NCBI RefSeq assembly: GCF_003667275.1
Contig: NZ_RCNV01000002.1
Span: forward strand, 62,001-126,000
Direction: 5' to 3'
Length of the DNA stretch: 64,000 nucleotides
Origin: Mesonia aquimarina
GTDB lineage: Bacteria > Bacteroidota > Bacteroidia > Flavobacteriales > Flavobacteriaceae
Part shown: positions 11,464-33,825 of the stretch, piece by piece
How the letters are laid out: every line of letters starts with the position of its first letter
Position numbering within the stretch: the stretch's first letter is position 1
Translations under genes and position numbers: made by a program
The notes under the pieces: model-generated
Told to the model about the DNA's origin: nothing
Database searches by the model: none
What the model saw: only the letters and a program-made list of their open reading frames with translations

Positions 11464-12978
<1,515 letters not shown>

Positions 12979-25265: not shown

Positions 25266-28200
25266 ATGATGCGAATCATTATGTGTTTACTCTTTTTTTG
25301 TGCTTCAATTTTTATGGGTCGAGCACAAGAAAATCCAGTTTACGCGCAACAAAAAAAAGTTGCGGTGCAGGACACTATTCGCATAGATTCTGTGAGTATT
25401 CGCCCGGACGGATTTCAACTATATTCCGCAGAAGGCAACCTCATTGATACCACAAAATATCGTATTAATTTTGCAGAAAGCTATTTAATTCTCAGTGATA
25501 GCTTAAAAATACAACAAGATTCTATTGCCGTTACCTACCGGAAATATCCGGAGTTTTTAACCAAAAAATACTATCAATTTGACCCTTCTATCATTTCTGA
25601 AGGCAATAACAATCAGCAAATTTACAAACTCGGACAAGCCAACAACACACCCCAATTTACTCCTTTTGACGGCTTAAACACCAGCGGTAGTATTTCTCGT
25701 GGCGTAACCGCGGGTACCAATCAGAATACCGTTTTAGATTCTGAATTAGACTTACAAATTTCCGGTAAAATTTCTCCCAAAATCGGTTTACGAGCTTCCA
25801 TTCAAGATTCTAATATTCCCATTCAAGAAAGCGGTTATTCACAAAATTTAGATGAATTTGATCAAGTTTTTATTGAACTTTTCGGTAAAAATTGGAACAT
25901 CAGAGCGGGGGATGTCAACTTAACACAAACCGAATCTTATTTTGCTAATTATACCAAAAAAGTACAAGGTTTATCGGTGGGTGCAACCTTAAATCCCGAC
26001 GGAAATAAAACCGAAGTTTTTGCTGCCGGTGCTTTAGTGCGTGGAGTTTTTACACGAAATCAGTTTCAGGCGCAAGAAGGAAATCAAGGTCCGTATAAAT
26101 TAACCGGCCCCAATGGCGAGCTATTTGTGTTTATAGTTTCGGGAAGCGAAGCGGTATTTGTAAACGGAATTCGTGTAGAACGCGGCGAAAATGAAGATTA
26201 TATTATTGATTATAATGCCGGCGAAATTATTTTCAACGCTACATTTCCGATTACTTCAGAAATGCGAATCACGGTTGAGTTTCAATATGCAGATCGAAAT
26301 TATTCGCGTATTGTAGCTACCGGCGGCGGAAAATATTACGGTGAGAAAATTCAGCTAGGGGCTTTTGTTTATTCTGAAAATGATTTGCAAAACCAACCGC
26401 TTCAGCAAAATCTTAGCGATGATCAAAAACAAGTTTTAGCTGATGCCGGCGATGATGAAAGTGAAATGATTGCGCCCAGTGCAGTTCCTGATACTTTTGA
26501 TGAAAACAAAGTTTTGTATCGAAAAGAACTGCAAAACGGAGAAGAAGTTTTTGTGTATTCTACCGATCCCGATGAAGAATTATTCAACGTAAAATTTAGT
26601 TTGGTCGGCGAAAATCAAGGAAATTATGTGTTAAGCAACGCAAGCGCCATCAGTAAAATTTATGAATATGTGGCTCCCATCAACGGAATTCCACAAGGAA
26701 ATTATGCACCCGTCACCCAACTTTTTGCTCCTAAAAAATTACAAGTCGCGGTAGTAAATGGTGCTTATCAAGCTTCAGAAAACACCGCTATAGATTTTGA
26801 ATTAGCCGGCAGTAAAAATGACGAAAATTTATTTTCTTCTTTAGATGATGACGATAACGATGGTTTTGCCGGAAGAGTTACAGCTCAACAAAATATTTGG
26901 AAAAACGATACCGAAAAAATTGAAGCTTTTGCTGCTTTTAATTACATTCAGGAGCGTTACCAAAGTATTGAGCGTTTGTATAATGTTGAATTTAATCGTG
27001 ATTGGAATTTAACCAACACGCCCACCGGAAACCAAAGTTTTGTAGATGCGGGTGTAAATTACTTGAGCGAAAAACGCGGTTCTGCAACCTATAGTTTTCA
27101 AAAGTTAGATTATACAGATAATTATAGCGGAGCTCGACAATTACTTCAGTATAATTTAAAATTCGGTAAGTTAAGCACACAGTTAAGCGGAAGTTTTTTA
27201 AAAAGTAATGCCGAAATTTTTGATTCAGAATTTCTTCGCCTCTATACAAATCTCGTGTATGATTTTGGAAAAGTTTGGACCGGAACTAGAATATCTTTAG
27301 AAGACAATGAACAAGTTGATAATGAAACCAACGAGCTTACAGGCATAAGCCAGCGGTTTAACAGCTACGAAGTTTACACCGGAATTGGTGATAGTACCGA
27401 TGTTTACGCTGAAATTGGTTACCGATACAGGGTAAACGACAGTTTACGGAACTCAGCTTTGCAGCGTGTAAGCAGTTCTGATAATTATTATTTACGTTCG
27501 CAATTGATTAATGCAGAAAACACCAAGCTTTCGGTTTTTGCAAATTACCGGAAATTGAATAATCAAGAAGAAGGTGTTGAAGATGAACATTCATTAAACT
27601 CTAGAATTTTATACAATCAATTTTTGTTTGATAAAATTTTGAATCTCAACTCGGTTTACGAAACCAACAGCGGGACACTTCCTCAGCAAGAATTTACCTA
27701 TGTAGAAGTAAACGCAGGTGAAGGACAATACACTTGGAACGATTATAACAACAATGGAGTACAAGAATTAGAAGAGTTTGAAATTGCCCCTTTCCCCGAT
27801 CAGGCAACTTATGTACGTGTTTTATTGCCCAACCAAATTTTTATAAAAACGCATCAGAATAAATTCAGTCAAATTGTAAGCCTTAATTTTCAGCAATGGA
27901 GTAAAAACGAAAATGGCACTAAAAATTTCTTATCTCATTTTTATAATCAGACTGCCTATTTAATTGATCGAAAAATAGAACGCGAAGGCGATAATTTTGA
28001 TGTCAATCCGTTTAACGATGATGGCAAAGAATTGGCGGTAAATCTTAACTTTAGAAACACCTTATTTTTTAACCGCGGAAAGCAGCATTACACCACTTCT
28101 TACAGTTATATTTCTACCCGAAACAAGAACTTACTAGTCACCGGATTACAAGAAAACGCTATACAAAGTCACCAAATTACCTTTAACCACAAGTTTGATG

Positions 28201-28682
28201 AAAGCTGGCTAATAACACTAAAAAACCATTACACCGATACGCAAAGTATATCGGAAAATTTTGAAAATAGAAATTATAAAATAGAGAGTTTTTTAGGTAA
28301 CCCGGAACTTTCTTATTTGCTATCGCAACGTACCCGTTTTGATGTTTTTTACCAATATGAAAATCAAATAAATTTACAAGGGGAACAAGAAGAATTAACC
28401 CAACATAAATTGGGCGCATCTTTTACATTTAATAATGCACAAAAATATTCCTTAAACGGCGAAGTAAATTACATTTACAACGATTTTACAGGCAGTCCGT
28501 TTTCTCCTGTTGCCTACCAAATGTTGCAAGGTTTACAACCCGACAAAAACTACACGTGGACACTTTTAGCACAAAAAAAATTGACCGATTTTTTAGATCT
28601 TAATCTTTCTTATTTTGGCAGAAAAAGCGAAAGTTCAGATACTATCCACACCGGAAGCGTACAATTACGAGCTTATTTTTAG
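25266..28682 (+). CDS. Large outer-membrane beta-barrel protein, function unknown
   Basis: A 1138-residue exported protein with a signal peptide (MMRIIMCLLFFCASIFMGRAQ; the initiator could be the first or second Met). About residues 20-110 are a beta-rich periplasmic domain. A segment around residue 300 (VFVNGIRVERGENEDYIIDY) resembles motifs in large cell-surface proteins of Bacteroidota such as SprA, and the rest is a long series of amphipathic strands. The protein ends with VQLRAYF, a terminal Phe suitable for BAM insertion. I cannot assign a function. Its last nine codons (including the stop) recur downstream at 30634-30660 in another context. Confidence 0.8.
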   Translation: MMRIIMCLLFFCASIFMGRAQENPVYAQQKKVAVQDTIRIDSVSIRPDGFQLYSAEGNLIDTTKYRINFAESYLILSDSLKIQQDSIAVTYRKYPEFLTKKYYQFDPSIISEGNNNQQIYKLGQANNTPQFTPFDGLNTSGSISRGVTAGTNQNTVLDSELDLQISGKISPKIGLRASIQDSNIPIQESGYSQNLDEFDQVFIELFGKNWNIRAGDVNLTQTESYFANYTKKVQGLSVGATLNPDGNKTEVFAAGALVRGVFTRNQFQAQEGNQGPYKLTGPNGELFVFIVSGSEAVFVNGIRVERGENEDYIIDYNAGEIIFNATFPITSEMRITVEFQYADRNYSRIVATGGGKYYGEKIQLGAFVYSENDLQNQPLQQNLSDDQKQVLADAGDDESEMIAPSAVPDTFDENKVLYRKELQNGEEVFVYSTDPDEELFNVKFSLVGENQGNYVLSNASAISKIYEYVAPINGIPQGNYAPVTQLFAPKKLQVAVVNGAYQASENTAIDFELAGSKNDENLFSSLDDDDNDGFAGRVTAQQNIWKNDTEKIEAFAAFNYIQERYQSIERLYNVEFNRDWNLTNTPTGNQSFVDAGVNYLSEKRGSATYSFQKLDYTDNYSGARQLLQYNLKFGKLSTQLSGSFLKSNAEIFDSEFLRLYTNLVYDFGKVWTGTRISLEDNEQVDNETNELTGISQRFNSYEVYTGIGDSTDVYAEIGYRYRVNDSLRNSALQRVSSSDNYYLRSQLINAENTKLSVFANYRKLNNQEEGVEDEHSLNSRILYNQFLFDKILNLNSVYETNSGTLPQQEFTYVEVNAGEGQYTWNDYNNNGVQELEEFEIAPFPDQATYVRVLLPNQIFIKTHQNKFSQIVSLNFQQWSKNENGTKNFLSHFYNQTAYLIDRKIEREGDNFDVNPFNDDGKELAVNLNFRNTLFFNRGKQHYTTSYSYISTRNKNLLVTGLQENAIQSHQITFNHKFDESWLITLKNHYTDTQSISENFENRNYKIESFLGNPELSYLLSQRTRFDVFYQYENQINLQGEQEELTQHKLGASFTFNNAQKYSLNGEVNYIYNDFTGSPFSPVAYQMLQGLQPDKNYTWTLLAQKKLTDFLDLNLSYFGRKSESSDTIHTGSVQLRAYF

Positions 28683-28726
28683 TTTTTTTAACTACTTGGA
28701 AATTTATTTTTATATTGCATAACGTA
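28655..28726 (+). repeat. Flank repeat A, copy 1 (3' end of the barrel gene plus leader)
   Basis: This segment holds the last codons of the 1138-residue gene and the following AT-rich leader with TATATTGC at 28711-28718. A second copy lies at 30633-30708. The first 28 bases differ at only two positions, both third codon positions, so the encoded end SVQLRAYF-stop is the same in both. Confidence 0.85.
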
Positions 28727-28781
28727 AATTTTTATTAATCTCAACTTTTTGAACTTTATTAAAGTTGAACAAATTTTTCAA

Positions 28782-30425
28782 ATGAAAATAGCACTCTTAG
28801 TTTTTAGTATCTGTTTAAGTTTTTTTTCCTACGGTCAAATAGAACACGAACATGTTACAAATGAAATTCTAGTTAAATTTAAAAACGATCACCCTAACGA
28901 AAATAAAATCAGTAGTTATTTTGAAAAGCCAGAGTTAAACAGATTACACAATATAATTAAAGTTTCTAATTATGAAGTAATAAGAAACTCAGAAAGCAAC
29001 ACTACGGTATTAATTCAATATCAAAATAATCAAATTAGTTTACAAAAAGTAATTGCCATGTATAAAAACACAGAAGTTTTTGAATATGTGGAGCCAAATT
29101 ATATAGCAACAGCAGGAGGAAAAAAAATGACAACTATTCCTAATGATGCTGAATATTCAAGACAGTGGGGGTTAAAAAACGACGGAACCTTTGCTGATGC
29201 TCCAGCAATAAGCGGTGCAGACATACAAATGGAACAAGCCTGGGATATAGAAAAAGGCGATGATGATATGATTGTAGCTATTATAGATTCAGGTTTACGA
29301 CTATCACATCCTGAATTCTCAGGTAGAATATGGACTAATACAGATGAAGTTTTAGACGGAACAGATACTGATGGAAATGGGTTTGTAGACGATATTTTTG
29401 CAGGTTGGGATTTTATAAATAATGACAATGATCCTACAGATGATCACGGTCATGGAACAAATGTGGCTGGTATTGCTCTTTCTTCGGGAGATAATTTTTA
29501 TGGTTATGCAGGTGTGAATTGGAATTCTCAAGTTATGATTTGTAAAGCTCTTAATGCAAATAATAGTGGAAGCTACGCAGCTATGGCTGGAGCTATTTAT
29601 TACGCCGTAGATAATGGAGCTAAAGTAATTAATATGTCGATTGGAGGTAGTGGAAGCTCATCCGTATTAAATGATGCAATTGATTATTGTTACAATAATG
29701 GAGTAGTGTTAGTTGCTTGCATGATGAATTTCAATAATAATATAAGCTATTACCCCGCAGCTTATGATAAAACAATTGCTGTTGGTTCAACAGATCCAGA
29801 TGACACTCGAAGTAATCCTTTTTTCTGGAGTCCAACAAGTGGCAGTAATTATGGAGATCACATAGATATAGTAGCTCCAGGAAATTATATATATGGTTTA
29901 AGTTATGATTCGGATACAAATTATAACACTTATTGGGGAGGCACTTCTCAAGCATCTCCGTTGGTTGCTGGAGTTGTTTCACTTCTTTTAGCACAAAACC
30001 CTTCTTTAACTTTTGAGGAAATTAGAACAATATTACAAGAATCTTCAGAAGATCAAATTGGAGATCCTACGGAAGATAGTAATGGATTTGACATATACTA
30101 TGGTTACGGAAGACTTAATGCAAAGAATGCACTCACTCATCAAATGCTTAATTCTGGAGATTTAAAAAACCCAAATAGTTCAGTAATAATTTCTCCAAAC
30201 CCTATAGAGAGTTATAAAATCTTAAATATTACTAACCTAAAAAATTCTACATATACCATTTCTATTTATAACACACTAGGTCAACGTTTTTATAGTGTAA
30301 AAAAAGTAAATCAAAAGAAAGTATTAAGCCTAGAATTACCAAAACTTAACAGTGGAACTTACTTTATAGAGATTATAAACGAATCGAACCATACTTCAAC
30401 TAATAAAAAACTAATTGTCAATTAA
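28782..30425 (+). CDS. Secreted S8 subtilisin-family peptidase with T9SS sorting domain
   Basis: A 547-residue serine protease. The ATG at 28782 directly precedes the signal (MKIALLVFSICLSFFSYGQ); the frame is open upstream to a TTG at 28749. A prodomain spans about residues 20-110. The triad is D169 (AIIDSGL), H224 (DDHGHGTNVAG; the second His of HGTH is Asn) and S389 (GGTSQASP). The oxyanion region reads VACMMNFNNN instead of the common AAGN. Residues about 470-547 (ISPNPIESYKILNI to NKKLIVN) are a T9SS type A sorting domain, so the enzyme should be surface-attached or released. It is flanked by the duplicated segments described separately. Confidence 0.92.
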   Translation: MKIALLVFSICLSFFSYGQIEHEHVTNEILVKFKNDHPNENKISSYFEKPELNRLHNIIKVSNYEVIRNSESNTTVLIQYQNNQISLQKVIAMYKNTEVFEYVEPNYIATAGGKKMTTIPNDAEYSRQWGLKNDGTFADAPAISGADIQMEQAWDIEKGDDDMIVAIIDSGLRLSHPEFSGRIWTNTDEVLDGTDTDGNGFVDDIFAGWDFINNDNDPTDDHGHGTNVAGIALSSGDNFYGYAGVNWNSQVMICKALNANNSGSYAAMAGAIYYAVDNGAKVINMSIGGSGSSSVLNDAIDYCYNNGVVLVACMMNFNNNISYYPAAYDKTIAVGSTDPDDTRSNPFFWSPTSGSNYGDHIDIVAPGNYIYGLSYDSDTNYNTYWGGTSQASPLVAGVVSLLLAQNPSLTFEEIRTILQESSEDQIGDPTEDSNGFDIYYGYGRLNAKNALTHQMLNSGDLKNPNSSVIISPNPIESYKILNITNLKNSTYTISIYNTLGQRFYSVKKVNQKKVLSLELPKLNSGTYFIEIINESNHTSTNKKLIVN

Positions 30426-30501
30426 TCAATACTTTTCAAGAAGAAAGATGATTATAAAATCAAACTATTAGTTTAGTTATATTGTTTTTGATCAATTAAT
30501 G

Positions 30502-30548
30502 TTTAAACCAAAAAAGCACCGAATTTAACGGTGCTTTTTTGGTTTAAA
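30502..30548. terminator. Long perfect-stem terminator after the subtilase
   Basis: Arms 30502-30521 and 30529-30548 form a perfect 20-bp stem with loop AATTTAA; the core is GCACCG/CGGTGC beside A-runs and T-runs. The right arm and loop belong to the block duplicated at 33538, whereas the outer left arm is found only in this copy. Confidence 0.9.
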
Positions 30549-30623
30549 TATGAAGAAGCTTTATTCTTTCTTTTTTAAGGCCAGTTCTAATTCTTGAATT
30601 TTAGCGTTTTTTGCCTACTAAAA
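30510..30623 (-). pseudogene. Fragment of the 78-residue membrane-protein gene (flank repeat B, copy 1)
   Basis: About 102 bases match 33538-33639 with four differences. The match covers the terminator and the 3' end of the minus-strand 78-residue gene, so this fragment still reads KNAKIQELELALKKKE-stop in frame (Val to Ala once), then loses homology near 30612-30623. No start codon or membrane segments remain. It is a remnant left by a duplication or recombination event, not a gene. Confidence 0.85.
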
Positions 30624-30632
30624 TTAGGAAAA

Positions 30633-30708
30633 AAGCGTGCAATTACGAGCTTACTTTTAGATTTTTTTAACTTATTTTAAAAATTTGTTTTATATTGCTT
30701 AGCGTTAA
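30633..30708 (+). repeat. Flank repeat A, copy 2 (displaced 3' end of the barrel gene plus leader)
   Basis: Matches 28655-28726. It carries the codons for SVQLRAYF and a stop with no gene body in front; upstream sequence turns abruptly into the flank B remnant through a ~10-bp junction (about 30623-30632). The leader with TATATTGC at 30691-30698 then sits 21 bases before the BspA-like start codon, so this copy probably supplies the promoter region of that gene. Confidence 0.85.
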
Positions 30709-30718
30709 AACTAATTTT

Positions 30719-33511
30719 ATGAAAAATCTTTACACTCTTATTTTTTTAACATTTATATCTTTTACTATAAATGCACAAAACCAACCGTTTATTACTACAT
30801 GGGGGGTTTCATCATTTGATGGCTTAGATATTACAATTCCTACTAAAGGAACAGGTTATAATTATACCATTGATTTTGGAGATGGAACTGTAGAAAATAA
30901 TGTAACGGGCGACGTTTCTCATACCTACAATTCTTCAGGAATATATACAGTAAGTATTACTGGGGATTTCCCTAGAATATGCTTTGGAAACTATTGGTTT
31001 ACCACATCTAATATGGAAGATAAAATCGCTTCTGTGGAGCAATGGGGTGATATTCAATGGTACTCTATGAGTGAAGCCTTTTACGGGTGTGATAATTTAA
31101 ATATTAATGCAACGGATATTCCAGATTTAAGCCAAGTAACTGATATGAGTTCTATGTTAAGAGAAGTAAATTTCATTAATTCATCAATTAATAATTGGGA
31201 TGTTTCAAATGTGACTAATATGAGTTACTTATTTGCTTATGCAGACTCATTCAATCAACCACTTGATAATTGGGATGTTTCGAGCGTAATCAATATGGAG
31301 TCTATGTTTTGGGAGGCTTATAGTTTCAACCAATCAATAGATAATTGGGATGTATCCAATGTAACTAATATGGTAGGCATGTTCTCTAATGCCGCAGCTT
31401 TTAATCAGGATATTGAAAATTGGGATGTATCCAATGTAACTAATATGGCAGGAATGTTCTCTTCTACAGGAGTATTTAATAAATCTTTAAATAATTGGAA
31501 TACATCTAATGTAACTGATATGTCAGGAATGTTCAAAAACGCAAATTCTTTTAATCAACCTCTAAATAATTGGAATACATCTAATGTAACTAATATGAAT
31601 TCTATGTTTACAAGCAATGGGGAATTTAATCAGCCTCTTGATAATTGGGATGTATCGAATGTCACTAACATGGGGGAAATGTTTGCTTCAAAAAACACAG
31701 GTATTCAAATGTCTTTTAATCATTCTCTTGAAAATTGGGATGTTTCGAATGTGACCAACATGGGGGAAATGTTTTTTTCTAATTCTTCTTTCAACCAACC
31801 TCTAAATAATTGGGATGTTTCAAATGTTAGTCTTTTGTCGGGTATGTTTTACAAAGCCACTTCCTTTAACCAACCTCTCAATAATTGGGATGTTTCGAAC
31901 GTAACTTTTATGACAGGAGTTTTTTTTAATGCAACTACATTTAATCAGGATTTATCGGCTTGGGAAATAAACACCACAAATTTAACTAACTTTCTATCTA
32001 ATTCTGGTTTGGATATTAATAATTACGACTATTTTTTGAGCCATTTAAATACTTTAGGTTTGATGAATGGATTTCTAGTAGCTGATGGACTTGAATATTG
32101 CGATCAAAGTTCGCACGATTACTTAGAAAACATTTTAGGGTGGAATATTCTAAGTGATAGCCAATCGCCAAATTGCAACTCCATAAACGGCGAAATAACC
32201 TATGATGAAAATAATAATGGTTGCGATCCAGCCGATCAAGGGGTTTCAGGTTTTATGGTTAACGCAAACGACGGTACAGATGATTTAAAAACCTATTCGA
32301 GTAATGGCAGCTATACTTTAGGAACAATTGGTACTAATTTTACCGTTTCAGTTATGAATTATCCTAGCTATTACTCTATAAGTCCGGCAAGCCAAAATGT
32401 AACTTTTAATACTTCTTCTACTGAAGTAGTCGATTTTTGTGTTACTGCCAATCAAAATATCGAAGATTTAAATATTACATTATTACCTACTAGTGAAGCG
32501 CGGCCCGGTTTTGAAGCTGACTACCAATTAGTAGTAGAAAATCTAGGAACTCAAAATGTTGCTAACGCAACGGTAACCGTAGATTTTGATGACGCCATGC
32601 AAAGCTTTGTTAGTGCTAGTGTAACGCCAACTTCTACTACCACAAATCAATTAAGCTTTGACATTACTAATTTACAACCGCTTACCAATCAAAAAATTGA
32701 TTTTACCCAGCAAACTTTTCAGCCGCCCACAGTAAACGGCAATGATATTTTAAACTTTAACGCCACAGTGACACCTAACGCTAACGACAATACGCCAACT
32801 GATAACACATTTATCTTTGATCAAGTCGTGGTAAATTCTTACGACCCTAATGATAAACAAGTTTTACAAGGCGAGGAGATTTATGAAGAAGAGACCGATG
32901 AATATTTAGATTATCTTATCCGTTTTCAAAATACAGGAACAGCAAGTGCCATTAATGTTCGGATTTTAGATACGCTTCATCCAAAATTAGATTACAGCAC
33001 CTTAAAGCCGGTAAGTGCAAGTCATAATTACCACATTGAAATTACAGATGAAAACCAAGTAGAATTTATTTTTGATAATATAAATCTTCCCGACGAAAAT
33101 ACTAATGAACCTGCAAGTCACGGATTTGTAGCTTATAAAATTAAACCGAAAAGCGATGTAGCAGTTGGAGATTTCATTGAAGGTGATGCGCGTATTTATT
33201 TTGATTTTAATGCGCCTATTATTACCAATATGGCTTCTACTGAAATTATTGATGATCTTAGTACTGATCCATATATCTTTGAAAGCTCTATTAGTTTGTA
33301 TCCTAATCCGACACAGAACATATTGAATATCGAGACTAAGAATAAAGCTGAGATAAAAAAATTAAAGCTTTTTAACCTTAACGGTATCCAGATAGAAACA
33401 GTTGTTAACAACAAAAAACAACTTAATGTAGAAAACCTAAGCAATGGAATTTATTTTATTAAAATTACCACAAACCAAGGAACTGTAACCAAACGATTTG
33501 TAAAAAAATAG
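30719..33511 (+). CDS. BspA/DUF285 repeat surface protein with PKD, DUF11-like and T9SS sorting domains
   Basis: A 930-residue surface protein; the ATG at 30719 precedes the signal MKNLYTLIFLTFISFTINAQ. Domains in order: a PKD-like domain (IDFGDGTVENN, HTYNSSGIYTVSI); ten DUF285/BspA-type repeats of 25 residues with core NWDVSNVTNMxxMF and ending FNQP; an SdrD-B-like segment (ITYDENNNGCDPADQGVSG); a DUF11/DUF7619-type region with SYDPNDKQV and YLIRFQNTGTASA; and a T9SS type A sorting domain (LYPNPTQNILNIE to VTKRFVKK). The repeats suggest an adhesin-like or ligand-binding role, which is inference. It lies in the duplicated cassette locus beside the subtilase. Confidence 0.9.
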   Translation: MKNLYTLIFLTFISFTINAQNQPFITTWGVSSFDGLDITIPTKGTGYNYTIDFGDGTVENNVTGDVSHTYNSSGIYTVSITGDFPRICFGNYWFTTSNMEDKIASVEQWGDIQWYSMSEAFYGCDNLNINATDIPDLSQVTDMSSMLREVNFINSSINNWDVSNVTNMSYLFAYADSFNQPLDNWDVSSVINMESMFWEAYSFNQSIDNWDVSNVTNMVGMFSNAAAFNQDIENWDVSNVTNMAGMFSSTGVFNKSLNNWNTSNVTDMSGMFKNANSFNQPLNNWNTSNVTNMNSMFTSNGEFNQPLDNWDVSNVTNMGEMFASKNTGIQMSFNHSLENWDVSNVTNMGEMFFSNSSFNQPLNNWDVSNVSLLSGMFYKATSFNQPLNNWDVSNVTFMTGVFFNATTFNQDLSAWEINTTNLTNFLSNSGLDINNYDYFLSHLNTLGLMNGFLVADGLEYCDQSSHDYLENILGWNILSDSQSPNCNSINGEITYDENNNGCDPADQGVSGFMVNANDGTDDLKTYSSNGSYTLGTIGTNFTVSVMNYPSYYSISPASQNVTFNTSSTEVVDFCVTANQNIEDLNITLLPTSEARPGFEADYQLVVENLGTQNVANATVTVDFDDAMQSFVSASVTPTSTTTNQLSFDITNLQPLTNQKIDFTQQTFQPPTVNGNDILNFNATVTPNANDNTPTDNTFIFDQVVVNSYDPNDKQVLQGEEIYEEETDEYLDYLIRFQNTGTASAINVRILDTLHPKLDYSTLKPVSASHNYHIEITDENQVEFIFDNINLPDENTNEPASHGFVAYKIKPKSDVAVGDFIEGDARIYFDFNAPIITNMASTEIIDDLSTDPYIFESSISLYPNPTQNILNIETKNKAEIKKLKLFNLNGIQIETVVNNKKQLNVENLSNGIYFIKITTNQGTVTKRFVKK
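31187..31951 (+). repeat. Ten tandem 75-bp coding repeats (DUF285/BspA type)
   Basis: The repeats encode nine 25-residue units and one of 30 residues (the seventh, with an extra SKNTGIQM-like stretch). The core NWDVSNVTNM is encoded by closely similar DNA, and two neighbouring units carry NWNTSNV instead, which suggests unit duplication. Copy number could change by slippage or recombination without shifting the frame. Confidence 0.9.
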
Positions 33512-33537
33512 ATTTTTCACAAGAATACAACTATCAA

Positions 33538-33568
33538 AAAAAAGCACCGGATTTAACGGTGCTTTTTT
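33538..33568. terminator. Terminator after the BspA-like gene (flank repeat B, copy 2)
   Basis: Arms 33538-33549 and 33557-33568 (A-run, GCACCG, loop GATTTAA, CGGTGC, T-run) form a 12-bp stem between convergent genes. Only the inner part of the longer stem at 30502-30548 is shared; beyond the A-run the left side differs. Confidence 0.88.
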
Positions 33569-33588
33569 GGTTTAAATATGAAGAAACT

Positions 33589-33825
33589 TTATTCTTTCTT
33601 TTTTAAGACTAGTTCTAATTCTTGAATTTTAGCGTTTTTCTCGCTTACTAATAATCTTTGGTATTTTGCTTCGGCTATAAAATAAACAACAATAAATATA
33701 TTTTGAACAGTCATTGAAATATATTCCTTTCCAATCGGAAAAAAACGTGCTATTAATAACAACATAAATATTGCCATTGCACTTAAACTCATGTATCTCC
33801 AAAATTTCTTATTCTTTAAAATCAT
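33589..33825 (-). CDS. Small membrane protein with C-terminal coiled coil
   Basis: A 78-residue protein with two hydrophobic segments (about residues 11-30 and 36-52) and a charged helical tail (SEKNAKIQELELVLKKKE). No family is recognised. Its start lies directly after the glyS stop codon, so it is probably co-transcribed with glyS. Its last 16 codons and the terminator are duplicated at 30510-30623. It is likely a real gene, because the duplicate fragment differs by only one residue, but short length limits certainty. Confidence 0.6.
   Translation of the reverse strand: MILKNKKFWRYMSLSAMAIFMLLLIARFFPIGKEYISMTVQNIFIVVYFIAEAKYQRLLVSEKNAKIQELELVLKKKE

What the first reader, a model, noticed from the sequence alone, without database searches (positions are those of the whole stretch)
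28655..33653. Tandem 'cassette slot': duplicated flanks around two unrelated T9SS-exported genes
Seen: the 3' end and leader of the 1138-residue gene (28655-28726) recur at 30633-30708, and the terminator plus 3' end of the minus-strand 78-residue gene (33538-33653) recur at 30510-30623. The first unit carries a subtilase, the second a BspA-like repeat protein; the cargo genes are unrelated outside their sorting domains. The first 28 bases of flank A differ only at two synonymous sites, and flank B differs at 4 of about 102 sites. This fits tandem duplication of a locus followed by replacement of one cargo, or import of an allelic cassette by homologous recombination through the conserved flanks. 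It would be a simple way to swap or accumulate surface proteins at a fixed site.
Basis: partly seen in the sequence, partly recalled or inferred. Interest (0 to 1): 0.75.

Follow-up and report, generated by a model that had tools for sequence, protein, structure and literature searches.

The report
Gene-swapping slot between two bacterial genes
Marine flavobacteria repeatedly gain and lose different exported or transport genes at one fixed gap between two conserved genes, and here a leftover copy of a neighbouring gene's end suggests that a new gene was added in front of the old one instead of replacing it.

Summary
The duplicated flanks are real. A = last 28 nt of the 1138-aa ('barrel') gene plus leader (28655-28728 / 30633-30708). 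B = terminator plus end of the 78-aa gene (30510-30611 / 33538-33639, 4 of 102 sites differ). The A 28-mer occurs exactly twice in this Mesonia genome. The barrel→←glyS gap is a genuinely variable site. Among the 6 of 15 Mesonia genomes that keep the pair adjacent, three are empty, M. algae has only the PARCEL (DUF285) gene, K7 has two unrelated genes, and the window has subtilase plus PARCEL. In 80 further family loci, 54 have glyS within 12 kb, with gaps of 58-8871 bp; other nearby gaps vary much less. Cargo is not only T9SS proteins: small exported proteins and RND efflux operons occur too. A genome of another genus (G102) shows the same anatomy: barrel, efflux operon, 277-nt displaced barrel tail, second cargo, glyS; what follows its displaced tail matches what follows the barrel gene in a congener with an almost empty gap. 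This favours recombination that is homologous at one end and illegitimate at the other, adding a cargo beside the resident one. Tandem duplication then replacement stays possible. Swapping between strains of one species could not be tested.

The parts
25266..28682 (+).
   Evidence: found in 16 of 16 Mesonia genomes and 247 of 397 family genomes at E<=1e-100
28655..28728 (+). flank A, copy 1: 28-nt gene tail plus leader in front of the subtilase
28782..30425 (+). cargo 1: subtilase (Peptidase_S8) with T9SS type A sorting domain
   Evidence: ORF listed from TTG 28749
30510..30627 (-). flank B, copy 1: terminator and truncated end of the 78-aa gene
30628..30632 (.). novel junction joining the 78-aa-gene remnant to the barrel-gene remnant; no clear shared stretch
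30633..30708 (+). flank A, copy 2: displaced 28-nt barrel tail plus PARCEL leader
30719..33511 (+). cargo 2: PARCEL/DUF285 repeat protein with DUF7619 and T9SS type A sorting domain
   Evidence: ORF listed from TTG 30695
33538..33655 (-). flank B, copy 2: terminator and intact end of the 78-aa gene
33589..33825 (-). 78-aa gene directly after glyS
   Evidence: homologues directly after glyS in G009 and G011
   Evidence: found in 16 of 16 Mesonia genomes

Best explanation
The gap between the convergent barrel gene and glyS is an old site, without recognised mobile elements, where Flavobacteriaceae gain and lose cargo genes. In the window, a chromosomal fragment carrying an alternative occupant recombined with a resident one: one end by homology in a shared border gene, the other end joined illegitimately, fusing a truncated 78-aa-gene end to a truncated barrel-gene end. 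The result is two cargoes in tandem (subtilase, then PARCEL) instead of a clean swap, with the displaced barrel tail (A2) and the truncated 78-aa end (B1) left as scars. The product looks the same whichever unit was resident; PARCEL is the likelier resident because M. algae carries it at the same site. Shown: both flank copies, their rarity in the genome, the variability of the site, and in G102 the ancestral context of the displaced tail. Inferred: the recombination mechanism, the order of events in the window, and uptake of DNA from a close relative.
For: Site variability: gaps of 50, 82, 220 bp and about 2.5, 3.8, 5.1 kb in six Mesonia genomes, while the three next gaps there stay within 48-66, 51-70 and 12-29 bp; 54 of 80 further family loci with gaps of 58-8871 bp. 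Controls in the named loci: gap over 300 bp in 20 of 26 for barrel-glyS, 4 of 46 for xth-barrel, 0 of 44 for ompA-xth, 1 of 13 for comF-ig546. G102, another genus: barrel gene, efflux operon, 277-nt copy of the barrel end (252 of 277 identical), 173-aa exported protein, glyS; the sequence after that copy matches what follows the barrel gene in congener G410 (score 134.6, maximum of 500 shuffles 18.6), so the copy is the old tail in its old context. In the window A2 carries the leader most like that of M. algae (score 19.0; 0 of 2000 shuffles, 1 of 246 control regions), and the window and M. algae slot PARCEL proteins fall in one 100/100-supported clade with one K7 copy from elsewhere. Homology-facilitated illegitimate recombination was proposed for a like displacement in V. 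cholerae (PMC5361080, passages).
Against: No strain of the same species was available. A1's leader does not match the M. algae leader beyond chance (10.5; 733 of 2000 shuffles, 143 of 246 controls reach it). Flank A has diverged more than flank B (11/74 vs 4/102, p 0.013; leader alone p 0.0036), which a single event does not predict without faster change in the leader. Scars are seen in two genomes only, and the G102 assembly is 87% complete in about 70 contigs, so a chimera is not excluded. In the named loci glyS-comF also varies, 182-2258 bp in 14. ComEC- and DprA-type genes are present but also in at least 10 of 14 control genomes, so they say nothing about competence.
Confidence: 0.6

Rival explanations
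1. Tandem duplication of the resident unit (A-PARCEL-B) within one genome, followed by replacement of the first PARCEL gene by the subtilase.
For: The first unit keeps a copy of the PARCEL-type leader in front of the subtilase, and A-B-A-B is what a tandem duplication gives.
Against: Needs two events. No PARCEL remnant was found between the subtilase stop and B1. A and B copies should be equally old but differ in divergence. In G102 duplication alone cannot give the order, as the two cargoes are unrelated and only a barrel tail is doubled.
Confidence: 0.22
2. The subtilase arrived by an unrelated insertion, and the flank copies come from separate local duplications or gene conversion.
For: The high identity of B (96%) against the lower one of A could reflect conversion of B.
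Against: The truncated ends of both border genes meet at one junction, and G102 shows the same order; independent accidents would have to coincide.
Confidence: 0.12
3. A mobile element or site-specific recombinase inserted one unit, using A or B as attachment sequence.
For: Repeats bound the units, as attachment sites would.
Against: No integrase or transposase family was matched by the cargo proteins scanned (not every cargo ORF was scanned). A and B are ends of border genes, not one repeated core. No viral contig matched the subtilase peptide patterns (exact patterns only); plasmid matches are all under 60% identity (602 records, best row 51.9% over 61% of the query).
Confidence: 0.04

Closest known systems
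Displacement of T6SS effector-immunity modules in Vibrio cholerae by homology-facilitated illegitimate recombination (PMC5361080; passages read)
   Same: Incoming DNA anchored by a conserved upstream sequence, illegitimate join downstream, older genes pushed downstream into a tandem array.
   Different: Here the site lies between two border genes not tied to a secretion machine; cargo are T9SS, efflux or other genes, and the displaced mark is the end of a border gene, not an immunity gene.
[quoted passage not shown] passages read)
   Same: A site bounded by the same two conserved genes, high turnover of content, no recognised mobile elements.
   Different: Seen here across genera with one genome per species; the hotspot statistic and recombination tests of that study were not run, and the two displaced-tail scars were not mentioned in the passages read.
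Gain and allelic exchange of T9SS surface proteins in Porphyromonas gingivalis (PMC5266723; passages read)
   Same: A T9SS-exported gene (PG0410) present in few strains at a syntenic place, suggested to move by homologous recombination.
   Different: Different class of Bacteroidota, different site, no flank scars in the passages read.
PARCEL (DUF285/TIGR02167) surface repeat proteins (PMC2996958; passages read)
   Same: Cargo 2 matches DUF285 and TIGR02167.
   Different: Here fused to DUF7619 and a T9SS type A tail.

Membership tests
Hotspot (spot with excess of horizontally acquired genes, sense of PMC5635113) | Same two conserved border genes in most genomes of a clade | tested here: inconclusive
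   Adjacent in 6 of 15 Mesonia genomes; within 12 kb in 54 of 80 family loci, within reach in 26 of 66 named loci
Hotspot (spot with excess of horizontally acquired genes, sense of PMC5635113) | Variable content compared with other gaps | tested here: met
Hotspot (spot with excess of horizontally acquired genes, sense of PMC5635113) | More transferred genes than the 95% threshold of simulations within a species | not testable with these tools
   One genome per species is held
Homology-facilitated illegitimate recombination product | One end of the insert continuous with a homologous border gene | tested here: met
   Window: barrel gene intact into A1, 78-aa gene intact into B2; G102: barrel gene intact
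Homology-facilitated illegitimate recombination product | Other end joined without extended homology | tested here: met
   Junctions at 30628-30632 and in L244 near 12357 show no long shared stretch; a short A-rich overlap in G102 is possible
Homology-facilitated illegitimate recombination product | Donor and recipient alleles observed | tested here: inconclusive
   G410 shows the recipient-type context for G102; no donor allele found; for the window only M. algae has a similar context
T9SS cargo | C-terminal type A sorting domain | tested here: met
   Both window cargoes over the curated cut-off
T9SS cargo | Actual secretion by T9SS | not testable with these tools
   Needs an experiment
Mobile genetic element | Integrase, transposase or like gene in the unit | tested here: not met
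   The subtilase and PARCEL proteins match no such family at E<=0.001 in Pfam or NCBIfam

The most novel reading that the evidence does not exclude
The barrel-glyS gap is an actively used exchange slot across Flavobacteriaceae: strains pass alternative surface and efflux cargo through the shared border genes by transformation, and each swap that is not clean leaves a displaced border-gene tail, so that the site keeps a readable record of former occupants.
Probability: 0.3. Interest if true: 0.7.

Novelty: new member of a known kind. Interest (0 to 1): 0.5.

Why it matters
A fixed, easily found site with gene gain and loss and no recognised mobile element, in a large environmental family, is a clean place to test how cargo spreads by recombination at core genes. 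Displaced border-gene tails are a countable mark of additive events and could be sought at other hotspots, to ask how often swaps fail and genes accumulate instead.

Tried and rejected
Remnant of an older T9SS gene end between the subtilase stop and B1 (30426-30509): rejected; the match to the PARCEL end was reached by 2028 of 3000 shuffles, the anchored peptide test by 121 of 1000, the best-match peptide test by 250 of 300.

Flanks as common repeats: rejected. Phage or plasmid origin of the subtilase: no support. Solved-structure hits of the barrel gene are to designed 'Pizza' proteins over about 31 residues, judged uninformative; none for PARCEL.

Search for further scars: one search tested 21 intervals (20 named, plus the window); apart from the window's flank A none exceeded its shuffle maximum by more than 2. 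One search tested 47 intervals and flagged six hits: L160 A is real; L156, L164, L175 B were inspected and look like short AT-rich matches; L169 B and L188 A were not inspected. One search tested 146 loci (at least five the same contig twice): L160 stands 73 above its shuffle maximum, L022 5.4, the window only 4.4, L057 3.2. L022 is a 46-nt AT-rich match; L057 was not inspected. The screen is thus too weak for scars as short as the window's.

The 45-nt repeat in G102 as a border of the slot: its matches in G410 (14.4, 13.8) stay under the shuffle maximum (16.6).

Choice of loci: about 155 barrel places were listed; I fetched 80, from the top of the list, passing over several near contig ends. 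One, L155, held only 328 bases and counts among the 26 without glyS. One search aligned a wrong stretch and is not used.

Changed since: flank A's uniqueness now rests, and several counts and contrary results were added; confidence in the best explanation is stated as 0.6.

Full report
Observation. The window lies in G000:C18:62001-126000, a genome whose genus contains named Mesonia species (contig lengths shared). Two flanks occur twice. Flank A (28655-28728 and 30633-30708) is the last 28 nt of the 1138-aa gene plus a leader. Flank B (30510-30611 and 33538-33639) is a terminator plus the end of the minus-strand 78-aa gene. B differs at 4 of 102 sites, A at 11 of 74. The leader likeness is beyond chance: 0 of 2000 shuffles and 0 of 246 real upstream regions reach it. 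The 28-nt tail occurs exactly twice in the genome with up to three mismatches.

Cargo. The first unit holds a subtilase, the second a PARCEL/DUF285 repeat protein; both carry a T9SS type A sorting domain. In the genus every genome has some subtilase, but the best long matches outside the window's gene are 31-37% identical over part of the protein; the best of the 199 family genomes searched is 48% (G088). PARCEL-type genes occur at other sites in many Mesonia genomes, often behind a leader with TTATATTGC or a variant, so the leader part of flank A seems to belong to that gene family. In a tree of 12 PARCEL C-terminal parts, the window and M. algae slot copies and one K7 copy from another contig form a 100/100 clade.

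Variability in Mesonia. Of 15 genomes with a complete barrel gene, 6 have glyS as the next conserved gene. Gaps: 50 bp (G007, M. profundi), 82 (G014), 220 (G008), about 2.5 kb (K7, two unrelated genes), 3.8 kb (M. algae, PARCEL only; its sequence holds a masked stretch) and 5.1 kb (window). In the barrel tree M. algae and M. profundi are sisters (99/99). In the other nine the barrel gene has different neighbours. A small gene directly follows glyS in G009 and G011 (homologous to the 78-aa gene) and, by eye, in G015; so flank B belongs to the glyS side.

Variability in the family. In 26 of 66 named loci glyS lies within the fetched DNA, with gaps of 50-9286 bp. Of 80 further loci, 54 have glyS within 12 kb, with gaps of 58-8871 bp: by ORF content 7 empty, 15 with small ORFs, 24 with large minus-strand proteins, 8 with RND-type operons. 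36 of 37 large minus-strand proteins match the T9SS tail model at E<=0.001. The RND type was confirmed by Pfam in one locus; the others are judged by ORF size and N-terminal likeness. Neighbouring gaps vary less, though glyS-comF, which usually holds one gene, ranges over 182-2258 bp in the 14 named loci. The large T9SS proteins of other genera look like one recurrent group (alignment), so part of the variation may be loss of old occupants rather than arrival of new ones.

A second scar. Among 47 intervals screened one hit is strong: G102, of another genus. Its order is barrel, a 125-aa protein, an AcrB-type and a CusB-type protein, a 277-nt copy of the barrel end (91%), a terminator-like stretch, a 173-aa protein, glyS. 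The sequence after the copy matches what directly follows the barrel gene in congener G410 (134.6; maximum of 500 shuffles 18.6), whose gap of about 330 bp holds no ORF of 70 aa or more. So the copy is the old tail in its old context, moved 6 kb away by a newcomer that brought its own barrel end. Congeners differ: G305 has a 132-aa protein and a 1354-aa T9SS protein, G411 and G412 (short contigs) begin RND-like genes. In the window A2 likewise carries a leader like that of M. algae (19.0; 1 of 246 controls), while A1's does not (10.5; 143 of 246).

Mechanism. One recombination, homologous at one end and illegitimate at the other, gives exactly this order and the fusion of a truncated 78-aa end to a truncated barrel end. 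It gives the same product whichever unit was resident. Such recombination was proposed for V. cholerae T6SS modules (PMC5361080, passages); hotspots linked to recombination at core borders are described in PMC5635113 (passages). Tandem duplication then replacement remains possible. The greater divergence of A than of B (p 0.013; leader alone 0.0036) fits neither model without a further assumption, such as faster change in the leader. B's 4% divergence is below the fourfold-site divergence of glyS in each of eight genome pairs compared (0.107-0.593), so the event is probably young; B includes a terminator and coding sequence, so this is only a rough guide.

Limits. One genome per species is held. 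The scar is seen in two genomes, one of them known beforehand, and the screen is too weak for scars as short as the window's. Six paper searches listed no paper whose title names this site; only listings and passages were seen, so this is no proof of absence in print.

Noticed in passing
G000:C11:508502-510850 (L141): A PARCEL-type paralogue elsewhere in the same genome whose matched stretches contain in-frame stops (1 TAG, 1 TGA), so it looks broken.
   Followed up: no
Upstream of PARCEL-type genes in L135, L138, L139, L141, L142, L145: A shared leader with TTATATTGC at unrelated loci, perhaps a family-specific promoter.
   Followed up: partly
L244:12323-12367 and 12870-12914 (G102): A 45-nt repeat (82%) after the efflux operon and again before the next cargo; no significant match in G410.
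   Followed up: partly
window 30496-30554 and 33531-33582: The terminator in B1 has a longer inverted repeat (26-nt arms, 92%) than B2, whose 5' arm has changed.
   Followed up: no
L014-L018, L023, L025-L027: In nine of 15 Mesonia genomes the barrel gene and glyS are no longer neighbours; rearrangement or large insertion at the same gap.
   Followed up: partly
Hit H1, NZ_CP043649.1:75817-76836: A Hymenobacter plasmid carries an S8 peptidase 51.9% identical to the subtilase over 61% of it.
   Followed up: no
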